58,092 bases of DNA from Chthonomonadaceae bacterium (GTDB taxonomy: Bacteria > Armatimonadota > Chthonomonadetes > Chthonomonadales > Chthonomonadaceae): the NCBI GenBank assembly GCA_027450145.1, contig DAIDKH010000021.1, positions 1-58,092 of the forward strand. Reading direction: 5' to 3'. The position numbers were made by a program, and so were the translations under genes. Below, in pieces: positions 25,234 to 28,159 of this stretch (the stretch's first letter is position 1; each line of letters begins with the position of its first letter). A model generated the notes under the pieces. That model saw only the letters and a list, made by a program, of their open reading frames with translations, was not told the DNA's origin and did no database searches.

Positions 25234-26181
25234 TCAGGGTACGAATACATTTGATCGGTGCCAGGCTAGTGCGGATAACGCTGGAGCGAGCCGTTCGTCT
25301 TGCGGCAGCAGAATGCGGTTTCCTGCGGGAACAAAGCGGTCTGAGGCAACTAGATGAGGAGACGTTACAAGCCTGTAGCCATCGTCAATTGCAAGCCCGC
25401 CATGGCGAAAGACAAATGCATGGTTGGCACAAAGATTTATTCCATTGCGCGGATCTTGATTGTGATAATAGTCTACCGGCAGAATGTGAACTGGGTTTGA
25501 TATAGAGTCGCCATTCGGCATCTCGGCACTCATGCTACAAATGGCACACCTGTCCATGTACAGACTGCGAATTGCATCGTCAAATACCCATTTAGATATG
25601 AAATAGGTGTCGTTACTGGGTTCGGCTACTCGGCGATATTTGAACAAGTCAAAATCCTGTTCCAGGTATCGCTTCAACGCCGCGACCTTAAGGTTTGTGG
25701 GAAGTGATTGAATCAACTGCTGAAGTGATATGTTGAAGTACTCATGCAGCAGTGCGGCACGCAGATAGTCCCGTTCCGACACGCCCTGTACGATGCACCA
25801 TAAGTCGTCGTTTAGAGTAGCAAACGCGCCCACTCTGTTTAGTCTAGCTATGGTGGGATTATCACCGATTACATCTTTAGGTAATGGTCCCCCGTCCTTA
25901 AGATGCAGCTTCCAAAAGCCCTCATACCCTAGAAAATAGAACGGGTTCGCCGGCCGTTGCAGCCAACTGTCACTGCCCACAAGCACGTCCCAGTGAGCAT
26001 TAAAACTGTAGACCAAATTGTTGTTGAGCTCTAATACGTTTTCAACAATCTGACCGGCTTCTATTTGCCATAGAACGGAAAGCAACATGATAGGCTTATG
26101 AGGCGCGCGATTACCTTTATTCACGTTGCAATGCAGGTGGCGAAAGCGCTTATAGTAGTTTTCTAATGCGGCTGAAGGCAT
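25234..26181 (-). CDS. Putative SBD-HNH restriction endonuclease (phosphorothioate-DNA type IV)
   Basis: 315 residues. The N-terminal ~150 residues hold GNRAPHKPIMLLSVLWQ and RPANPFYFLGYEGFWKL. These match the conserved APHKP and PFxxL segments of sulfur-binding domains (SBD), which read phosphorothioate-modified DNA in ScoMcrA-type enzymes. The C-terminal ~90 residues form an HNH nuclease: CAICS, VHILPVDYYHNQDPRNGINLCANH, then GLAIDDGYRL. Cys pair, catalytic His and Asn-rich core are all present. SBD-HNH proteins cut foreign phosphorothioated DNA as stand-alone type IV restriction enzymes. No dnd or ssp modification genes are in the window, in keeping with that role. It is the last gene of a long minus-strand run, which is unusual company for a defence gene. 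Confidence 0.78.
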   Translation of the reverse strand: MPSAALENYYKRFRHLHCNVNKGNRAPHKPIMLLSVLWQIEAGQIVENVLELNNNLVYSFNAHWDVLVGSDSWLQRPANPFYFLGYEGFWKLHLKDGGPLPKDVIGDNPTIARLNRVGAFATLNDDLWCIVQGVSERDYLRAALLHEYFNISLQQLIQSLPTNLKVAALKRYLEQDFDLFKYRRVAEPSNDTYFISKWVFDDAIRSLYMDRCAICSMSAEMPNGDSISNPVHILPVDYYHNQDPRNGINLCANHAFVFRHGGLAIDDGYRLVTSPHLVASDRFVPAGNRILLPQDERLAPALSALAWHRSNVFVP

Positions 26182-26243: not shown

Positions 26244-26924
26244 CTAAATCGTGCTATACATCTGTAATGCCCGCAACCACGAATCCTTCTCCTCGCCTCT
26301 GGATTCGTGTTGAAATCGGTAGTCACTCTTGCGGACGATTTCGGCAAGCTGATCTCTTAGTATAATTACGCGACGTCTGTTCTCCTCGCGCAGTTCCACC
26401 GATTCCGACTCAGGTACAAGGCTACATAAAAGAGCGCTGTGCTTTACACAAAGGCCATACTTAGATTGCTTTAGCGCCTCTAAGAAGATGTGATCACGGT
26501 GCATACTTGCTGCTGCAGCCTTTAGATACCGCTTCTCGGCTCCTGCTTCATCCTCACAACAGAGGCATGTCTTCCCAAGTATTGGGGCTCGCGGCGTTGC
26601 GGGCCACCTGCGCGGCCTCAATTCGGCAGCATCCTTCTTAAGGAATCCCTCAACCACATCAATGTAAAGTATCGCAGTGCCCAACGGATCGCCCAGGCGT
26701 GAAGCGAGTTCGCTGTGCCTTTGGCAAAATCCATGGGTTTGCCTCCACCTCAGTCGCAGGTCATAGTCGTTGACCAGCTCGGTGTAGAGTGCCTTAATTG
26801 CTCGTTCTGCAGCGCGGTTCTTCAGGTAACAAAGAGCACACAGAGTACTGGGGGCAGCTGGCACATCTCGTAGGGCCTCAATGATCTCTTCCACTGAGGC
26901 TTCTAATGTGGGACGATGACGCAT
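26244..26924 (-). CDS. DUF6062-like Cys/His-rich protein
   Basis: 226 residues from the ATG at 26924. It has paired Cys/His motifs of likely metal-binding type: CALCYLKNRAAERAI, HGFCQRHSE, CLCCEDEAG and GLCVKHSALL, spaced along a mostly helical chain. This matches, from memory, the DUF6062 family. That family has no assigned function; the repeated C-x2-C...C-x2-H layout suggests two zinc sites. The ATG overlaps the stop codon of the upstream gene by one base (TAATG), so translation is coupled to the coiled-coil membrane protein. Confidence 0.7.
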   Translation of the reverse strand: MRHRPTLEASVEEIIEALRDVPAAPSTLCALCYLKNRAAERAIKALYTELVNDYDLRLRWRQTHGFCQRHSELASRLGDPLGTAILYIDVVEGFLKKDAAELRPRRWPATPRAPILGKTCLCCEDEAGAEKRYLKAAAASMHRDHIFLEALKQSKYGLCVKHSALLCSLVPESESVELREENRRRVIILRDQLAEIVRKSDYRFQHESRGEEKDSWLRALQMYSTI

Positions 26925-28159
26925 TACAGTTTCCGGAACCATTCGCGTGGATCCGCGCTTATGACGGGTTTGTGATCCGCCTTGCCAGAGTCGTCTACAG
27001 CCGTTTGAGCCGCCTCCTCGGGGGAGACCGCAACTGCATCACCAATTTCCGTAGGAGTGTCGTTGCCTGCGTGATTCTCATCACTGTTAAGTATCACGGA
27101 AGGAGACACAGACGAGTCCTCAACCCGCAGAGGCAACTCCTCGTTTGCTTTCTCAGCATCTATTTCGTTAGGCAGAGTATCCTGGTCTACTGCAGGGTAA
27201 TTGACCTCTTCGGGCCAGTGGAAGTCCGAGGTGCCATCCAGGGCTTCGGCGGACTCGGCAAAATCGCCATCAAGTACGATGGGGGCGGTCAGTAACGCGA
27301 TCTCCTCATTAGTCACGTAGGGGCTTTCCGAGGCGCCATTTAACCCGTATTGATCCTCCGAGGCAACAGACGCTGGTATCTCTTCGATTACGGGCATTTC
27401 AGGGACTGCATATATCGGATCCTGAGGTTGAACAACTGCCTCAGGGACGCACGGCTCCAGTACAAACTCATTGTCCGCAATAGGTTCATCCACAGTGGAT
27501 GCGTCTATAGTCTGCGGCTCTGCAATAACGGTTGTGGCAGCGTTAAGGGTAATTACGTCCAGATCGTCTGAATCCGGCTCTGGTACTGCATCTATCTCGG
27601 TTATCTGCCGCGGCGCGCCCTCGGCAGGACTTGCTATGGCTGTATGCTGCAGTTTAGCATTCACGTCGCGCAGCTGGTGGTTGACCTGCTGTAGGCCTGC
27701 ACGGTGATACTGTAAAGCGAGATGAATAGTATCGATTTGCCGATTTACTGCCGATAGGTGCTCGTTTAATGGAGCGGTAGCCGCTTGGCTGAAAGATCTT
27801 AATTCGGCGTTCATCTCATTCTGACGTAATACCGAGTCCTTCATTGCCGCTTGAGCATTGTCTAGCTGCTGCTTTAGTTTGGCCACTTCAGTACGTGACT
27901 CGTTGGCTGCCGCCTGCTGCTGCGCGGCCAGCTCTTTCTGAAGCTGCACCTGACTGTCCTGGTAGCTAGCAAATATGAAAGCCACCATAAGTATCAGTAC
28001 TGCACATCCATCGAGTGTCCAAAGCGCAGGTGTCTGCTTCTGAGCAGTGATCCAGCCGTTAAAAGTGGGCGTGGCGGAAGTCAGTGCCGTTTCCACAGCA
28101 ACTAGTGCGCCACAAAAAAAGAGGACAACAGCCAGCATAACAGACGAACGCGGTTTCAT
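26924..28159 (-). CDS. Membrane-anchored coiled-coil protein with long acidic tail
   Basis: 411 residues from the ATG at 28159, which has GAGGAG 5 bases upstream. Two hydrophobic segments occur near the N-terminus (VMLAVVLFFCGALVAVE and LDGCAVLILMVAFIFASY). A Gln/Ala/Lys-rich coiled coil follows (about 75-185). The rest, over 200 residues, is Glu/Asp/Pro-rich and probably disordered, ending WFRKL. No family is recognised. It lies 28 bases after mutY and is translationally coupled to the DUF6062-like gene. The layout suggests a membrane-tethered scaffold, but no function can be named. Confidence 0.6.
   Translation of the reverse strand: MKPRSSVMLAVVLFFCGALVAVETALTSATPTFNGWITAQKQTPALWTLDGCAVLILMVAFIFASYQDSQVQLQKELAAQQQAAANESRTEVAKLKQQLDNAQAAMKDSVLRQNEMNAELRSFSQAATAPLNEHLSAVNRQIDTIHLALQYHRAGLQQVNHQLRDVNAKLQHTAIASPAEGAPRQITEIDAVPEPDSDDLDVITLNAATTVIAEPQTIDASTVDEPIADNEFVLEPCVPEAVVQPQDPIYAVPEMPVIEEIPASVASEDQYGLNGASESPYVTNEEIALLTAPIVLDGDFAESAEALDGTSDFHWPEEVNYPAVDQDTLPNEIDAEKANEELPLRVEDSSVSPSVILNSDENHAGNDTPTEIGDAVAVSPEEAAQTAVDDSGKADHKPVISADPREWFRKL

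What the first reader, a model, noticed from the sequence alone, without database searches (positions are those of the whole stretch)
25234..26181. Solitary SBD-HNH protein: likely phosphorothioate-dependent type IV restriction
APHKP and PFYFL segments plus a C-terminal HNH core with Cys pair match the ScoMcrA/SprMcrA group. It is the last gene of a housekeeping run, not in a defence island, and there is no dnd or ssp cluster in the window.
Basis: partly seen in the sequence, partly recalled or inferred. Interest (0 to 1): 0.5.

Follow-up and report, generated by a model that had tools for sequence, protein, structure and literature searches.

The report
Sulfur-DNA reader with dismantled nuclease
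This bacterial gene belongs by descent to enzymes that recognise DNA with sulfur in its backbone and cut it, but in this genus the residues that hold the cutting metal have been replaced and the replacement is strongly conserved, so the protein probably still grips sulfur-marked foreign DNA without cutting it.

Summary
[quoted passage not shown] Sulfur-pocket residues H28, K29 and P80 are kept. No phosphorothioate (PT) writer was found in the genome (control), as expected for a solitary type IV enzyme. But the HNH active site is dismantled: the second HNH histidine and a downstream aspartate, metal ligands needed in TagI (PMC6212794), are Ala255 and Arg259. The congener G001 has the same pair; the 86 other distinct SBD-HNH sequences collected that reach this region all keep His and Asp. 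The altered core, residues 227-262, is the best-conserved stretch between the two species (32 of 36; SBD 67%), so it is not decaying. The gene follows DUF6062 in the three genomes of the genus and in none of the 11 other family genomes with a DUF6062 match. Most likely it is a PT-DNA reader that binds without cutting. Weak cutting remains possible: SprMcrA is H-N-R and still cuts (PMC7461809). New variant of a known kind.

The parts
25234..26181 (-). SBD-HNH gene, 315 aa plus stop
25702..26181 (-). sulfur-binding domain, residues 1-160
   Evidence: 8h0l match: phmmer E 3.6e-11, VIA-align Z 19.9 over residues 4-152
26095..26100 (-). sulfur-pocket residues H28-K29 (equivalent to ScoMcrA H116-R117)
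   Evidence: alignment to 5zmo; pocket from PMC6224610; H, K and P80 all present in 86 of 89 distinct sequences
25933..25947 (-). sulfur-pocket segment N79-P80-F81-Y82-F83 (P80 equivalent to ScoMcrA P165)
   Evidence: P80 in 95 of 95 rows
25567..25701 (-). linker, residues 161-205 (mostly low-confidence part of the model)
   Evidence: pLDDT blocks
25237..25566 (-). HNH-fold domain, residues 206-315
   Evidence: TagI 6ghs Z 14.6 over residues 195-315
25396..25503 (-). remodelled beta-beta-alpha core, residues 227-262; strand-strand-helix predicted intact
   Evidence: secondary structure; 32 of 36 identical to the congener, top of 279 sliding windows, tied with two overlapping ones
25486..25488 (-). 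H232, first His of HNH, retained (TagI H229)
25417..25419 (-). A255 in place of the second HNH His (TagI H254, metal ligand)
   Evidence: PMC6212794 section read
25405..25407 (-). R259 in place of the metal-binding Asp (TagI D258)
25420..25431 (-). second half of the structural zinc site, C251-x-x-H254, retained (first half C212/C215 at 25537-25548)
   Evidence: Zn site described for TagI
26244..26942 (-). DUF6062 gene immediately upstream; neighbour in the three genomes of the genus

Best explanation
A genus-specific SBD-HNH protein that has lost catalysis but not selection. The SBD is expected to insert the Rp sulfur of phosphorothioated DNA into the H28/K29/P80 pocket, as its solved relatives do (inferred from conserved residues and fold). 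The HNH fold and its structural zinc ligands are kept, but the catalytic metal site is replaced by Ala255 and Arg259, so it should not cleave (inferred from TagI biochemistry). I propose that the HNH half serves as a dimerising and backbone-gripping clamp, with Arg259 taking the charge role of the metal. The protein would act by occupying PT-marked incoming DNA and hindering its replication or expression, or by handing it to another factor. Because the host seems to make no PT of its own, such binding would be specific for foreign DNA. Shown: sequence, predicted fold, residue losses, conservation, synteny, no PT genes found in the assembly. Inferred: PT binding, lack of cleavage, clamp mechanism.
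For: SBD identity and pocket. Metal-ligand loss: TagI H254 and D258 align with A255 and R259; the TagI paper reports both as metal-coordinating and needed for activity. Shared loss: window and G001 both have Ala/Arg; of 89 distinct SBD-HNH sequences, 86 have His/Asp, 2 Ala/Arg, and 1 is cut off before the site. Not decay: HNH 79% against SBD 67% identity between the two species, pN 0.127 against pS 0.75 in the HNH; the altered core is the best-conserved 36-residue stretch. HNH conservation at this SBD divergence lies within the range of pairs that keep the catalytic residues: SBD 0.66-0.70, HNH 0.62-0.83. Same site in 3 of 3 genus genomes. No PT writer found in the genome, with a working control.
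Against: SprMcrA naturally has H-N-R catalytic residues and still cuts (PMC7461809), so losing the second HNH His alone is not proof of inactivity, and the TagI paper notes that the Asp is not present in all enzymes of that family. Only two species show the Ala/Arg pair; the third congener's gene breaks off at a contig end before the HNH. Synonymous sites are near saturation, so omega values are not usable. PT binding itself is untested, and base-reading residues vary in this family. Asn79 stands where the ScoMcrA lid Tyr is, although the congener fragment L005 has Tyr and other members vary. The long stem branch (1.18) also allows loss of PT specificity. The sample is capped: 80 of 447 or more confirmed relatives were returned.
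Confidence: 0.52

Rival explanations
1. An ordinary PT-dependent type IV restriction endonuclease (EcoWI/SprMcrA type) that still cleaves, using H232 and substitute ligands for the metal.
For: Full domain order and pocket conserved; H232, N246 and zinc ligands kept; no PT genes found in the host, in line with the published figure that fewer than 3.6% of such genes lie near a dnd cluster (PMC7461809 section read); SprMcrA H-N-R is active.
Against: Both metal ligands are lost together, Asp to Arg being a charge reversal; H254 and D258 are each needed in TagI; 86 of the 88 distinct sequences that reach the site keep both, the two others being this genus.
Confidence: 0.22
2. A repurposed DNA-binding protein of the genus that no longer depends on PT, for example a regulator or nucleoid protein next to a housekeeping operon.
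For: Long stem branch before the genus (1.18); same site downstream of DUF6062 in 3 of 3 genomes; no PT genes found in the host.
Against: Sulfur-pocket H28, K29 and P80 are all retained in the window, G001 and the G002 fragment.
Confidence: 0.18
3. A restriction gene in decay.
For: Active-site residues lost.
Against: No stop or frameshift in G000 or G001; HNH pN 0.127 against pS 0.75; the altered core is the most conserved stretch; the loss is shared by two species whose proteins are 71% identical.
Confidence: 0.05

Closest known systems
SBDHga1 (PDB 8h0l), sulfur-binding domain of Hga solved with PT-DNA
   Same: Fold of residues 4-152 (Z 19.9), PHK segment and pocket proline
   Different: Only the SBD is in the entry; 28-30% identity
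EcoWI / SprMcrA group of SBD-HNH PT-dependent endonucleases (NCBIfam NF045808)
   Same: Domain order, pocket HK and P, CxxC...CxxH zinc ligands, first HNH His and Asn, compared with the E. coli plasmid protein of that name
   Different: Second HNH His and the FD aspartate are Ala and Arg; 77 bits against the curated 180
TagI (PDB 6ghs), SRA-HNH modification-dependent endonuclease
   Same: HNH fold, Z 14.6 over residues 195-315
   Different: TagI has an SRA reader and an intact metal site H254/D258
ScoMcrA (5zmm, 5zmo)
   Same: SBD fold (Z 13.1) and pocket residues
   Different: Extra head and SRA domains; HNH H508/N522/H531 reported critical
SBD-HNH-like genes directly after dndC in G022 and G228 (L025, L026)
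   Same: SBD and HNH relatives in the same phylum
   Different: They keep His and Asp at 255/259 but lack part of the zinc site, and sit in dnd loci

Membership tests
Sulfur-binding domain (SBD) | SBD fold | tested here: met
   8h0l Z 19.9, 7ccj 13.2, 5zmo 13.1
Sulfur-binding domain (SBD) | Sulfur pocket: His, Lys/Arg, Pro (ScoMcrA H116, R117, P165) | tested here: met
   H28, K29, P80; residues from PMC6224610 passages
Sulfur-binding domain (SBD) | Lid residue Tyr (ScoMcrA Y164) | tested here: inconclusive
   Asn79 in the window; the paper says this site is conserved in only 7 of 23 homologs and it varies
Sulfur-binding domain (SBD) | Binding of Rp PT-DNA | not testable with these tools
   needs a shift assay
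SBD-HNH PT-dependent type IV endonuclease (EcoWI/SprMcrA) | N-terminal SBD, C-terminal HNH with zinc site | tested here: met
SBD-HNH PT-dependent type IV endonuclease (EcoWI/SprMcrA) | Intact HNH metal site (second His and Asp of the HH..FD motif) | tested here: not met
   A255 and R259
SBD-HNH PT-dependent type IV endonuclease (EcoWI/SprMcrA) | NCBIfam NF045808 curated cut-off | tested here: not met
   77 of 180 bits; four relatives with an intact motif also fall short, 85-135 bits
SBD-HNH PT-dependent type IV endonuclease (EcoWI/SprMcrA) | No PT-writing system in the same genome | tested here: met
   control; assembly 96.65% complete, so a missed locus is not excluded
SBD-HNH PT-dependent type IV endonuclease (EcoWI/SprMcrA) | Cleavage of PT-DNA | not testable with these tools
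   needs purified protein

The most novel reading that the evidence does not exclude
A naturally evolved, selectively maintained PT-DNA reader without a nuclease: an SBD-HNH protein in which Ala/Arg replaced the metal site and the HNH became a non-cutting DNA clamp, giving a PT-free bacterium a way to block or sense sulfur-marked foreign DNA by binding alone.
Probability: 0.42. Interest if true: 0.66.

Novelty: new variant of a known kind. Interest (0 to 1): 0.47.

Why it matters
SBD-HNH proteins are read as 'cut PT-DNA' enzymes and are named so by annotation. A lineage that removed the metal site yet conserves the altered core above all other parts suggests that PT recognition can be useful without cleavage. 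The authors of PMC7461809 raised restriction by tight binding as a possibility; here is a natural protein in which that can be tested directly. It would also give a ready-made non-cutting PT-binding reagent.

Tried and rejected
Recent arrival on a phage or plasmid: among 50,697 phage records 3 matched, none over 80% or more of the query; among plasmids 27 records matched, all under 60% identity; a viral-contig scan with the genus pair gave no relative. With the same site in three congeners, recent mobility is disfavoured.

Loss of the Asp that supports the first His (TagI D241; here Q242, His in G001): noted but not used as strong evidence, since EcoWI-like rows have Cys there and others Asn.

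A second, active copy in the genome that could pair with it: not found. The other two hits in the own genome are at E 0.013 and 0.1, and the profile search gave one match at 1e-8.

So '86 with His/Asp' holds for those plus the phylum's own, not for all relatives. In the viral scan one of the two search patterns itself asks for the His at 255, so its rows (19 of 22 plasmid/viral loci reach the site, all 19 His/Asp, 18 distinct sequences, two of them without an SBD match) are biased towards that state and are not counted as support.

Omega estimates: synonymous sites are saturated, so only pN against pS is used.

Literature. Searches listed no paper on a naturally nuclease-dead SBD-HNH protein; they cover open-licence PMC only. 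Seen: PMC7461809 outline and seven sections, PMC6212794 passages and one section, PMC6224610 passages, PMC7470945 outline and one section, passages of PMC10853773, PMC12839542 and PMC7145662. The original SprMcrA paper was not seen; its H-N-R result comes through PMC7461809. PMC10853773 reports SBD(wHTH)-SRA-HNH proteins inside many dnd loci, so an SBD nuclease is not always solitary.

Full report
What is there. The ORF at 25234-26181 on the minus strand encodes 315 aa. NCBIfam's 'phosphorothioated DNA-binding restriction endonuclease' model matches residues 11-313 at E 1.3e-21, 77 bits, under its curated 180. Four intact-motif relatives from other genomes score 85-135 bits, also under the cut-off, while an E. 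coli plasmid protein of that name scores 446. The PDB sequence search finds SBDHga1 (8h0l, E 3.6e-11). An AlphaFold2 model from 52 sequences has mean pLDDT 87. The second-look aligner places residues 4-152 on 8h0l at Z 19.9 and residues 195-315 on the TagI HNH at Z 14.6; the best chains outside these restriction enzymes score about 8. So the SBD-HNH call is right.

The sulfur pocket. PMC6224610 (passages read) defines the pocket of ScoMcrA by H116, R117 (Lys in most homologs), Y164, P165 and A168. The profile alignment to 5zmo puts these at H28, K29, N79, P80 and F83. His-Lys-Pro at 28, 29 and 80 is present together in 86 of 89 distinct sequences, this one included. N79 and F83 fall at variable sites. 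The pocket is therefore kept as far as sequence can tell; binding was not tested.

The active site. PMC6212794 (section read) describes TagI as using H229 (activates water), N245 (structural), H254 and D258 (bind the catalytic metal), and reports all four as needed for activity; it adds that the Asp is not present in every enzyme of that family. These align with H232, N246, A255 and R259. Of 95 rows of at least 230 residues, six are second copies of loci already present, leaving 89 distinct sequences: 86 have His/Asp at 255/259, two have Ala/Arg (window and G001), and one is cut off before the site. The sample is the phylum's own members plus the best 80 of 447 confirmed relatives. The zinc ligands C212, C215, C251 and H254 are kept, and the strand-strand-helix (228-232, 247-251, 252-259) is predicted intact. 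The fold stands; the metal site does not.

Not decay. Between G000 and the congener G001 the protein is 71% identical, without stops or frameshifts. The HNH (79%) is more alike than the SBD (67%), with pN 0.127 against pS 0.75; synonymous sites are near saturation, so no omega is quoted. Residues 227-262, the altered core, are identical at 32 of 36 sites, the highest of 279 sliding windows, tied with two overlapping ones. At similar SBD divergence (0.66-0.70), pairs that keep the catalytic residues have HNH identities of 0.62-0.83, the genus pair 0.78. In contrast, the genus is further from seven phylum relatives in the HNH (mean 0.37-0.39) than those relatives are from each other (0.47-0.53), and the FastTree tree gives the genus a long stem (1.18) inside a nine-member phylum clade with support 0.996. 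This fits a burst of change followed by constraint.

Place in the genome. DUF6062 is matched in 14 of 17 family genomes. A relative of the coiled-coil gene lies upstream of it in 10 of those 14, and in G010 a MutY relative too, the loci being cut at about 1.5 kb. SBD-HNH follows DUF6062 in the three genomes of this genus (G000, G001, G002; in G001 the DUF6062 gene is split over two contigs) and in none of the other 11. In other genera with the protein (G007, G010, G011) its neighbours differ. It was probably gained at this site by the genus's ancestor and kept.

Host PT status. DndC: none of the family's 17 genomes passes the cut-off, one (G016) has weak partial matches, and 4 of 291 in the phylum pass it. 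SspB/DUF4007 is found in 16 of 291, not in G000 or G001; G002 has a weak 24-bit match. PF01507 gives one hit in the own genome, beside an APS-kinase-like gene and CysH-like by its sequence (these names are my reading). The same search hit a PAPS-reductase domain at the dnd or ssp locus in 9 of 9 genomes shown to hold such genes. So the host very probably does not mark its own DNA; the assembly is 96.65% complete.

Mechanism. The simplest account is a reader without scissors: the SBD recognises PT in incoming DNA, and the HNH half dimerises and holds DNA, with an Arg in the place of the metal-binding Asp. Harm to the invader would come from occupancy or recruitment. PMC7461809 (section read) mentions restriction by tight binding as possible. 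The main reservation is in the same paper: wild-type SprMcrA is H-N-R and still cuts, about 40-fold better when the Arg is changed to Asn. Here two ligands are lost and one is charge-reversed, so I place active cutting at about one in five.

Compared with the known. By descent this is an SBD-HNH protein; by the tested active-site criterion it is not a PT-dependent endonuclease. I call it a new variant of a known kind.

Noticed in passing
L045, L058, L065 (Poribacteria MAG contigs): Two SBD-HNH genes close together on each contig, both with intact His/Asp.
   Followed up: no
L025 and L026 (G022:C577 and G228:C43): SBD-HNH relatives directly after dndC; catalytic His/Asp kept but zinc ligands partly replaced (C215T, C251S, H254A).
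   Followed up: partly
G202, G203, G190, G226, G183, G186, G047: SBD-like matches lie within about 6 kb of SspB/DUF4007 genes, possibly SspE-like effectors.
   Followed up: no
L002 (G000:C5:95756-96169): Another HNH protein in the own genome whose second HNH His position is Arg while the Asp is kept.
   Followed up: no
L024 (G031:C48) and L011 (G012:C186): An SBD-HNH copy with an in-frame TAA in the matched frame, and a fragment in which the pocket His is Leu.
   Followed up: no
window:26244-26942: DUF6062, unknown function, cysteine-rich, preceded by a coiled-coil gene in 10 of the 14 family genomes that have it.
   Followed up: partly
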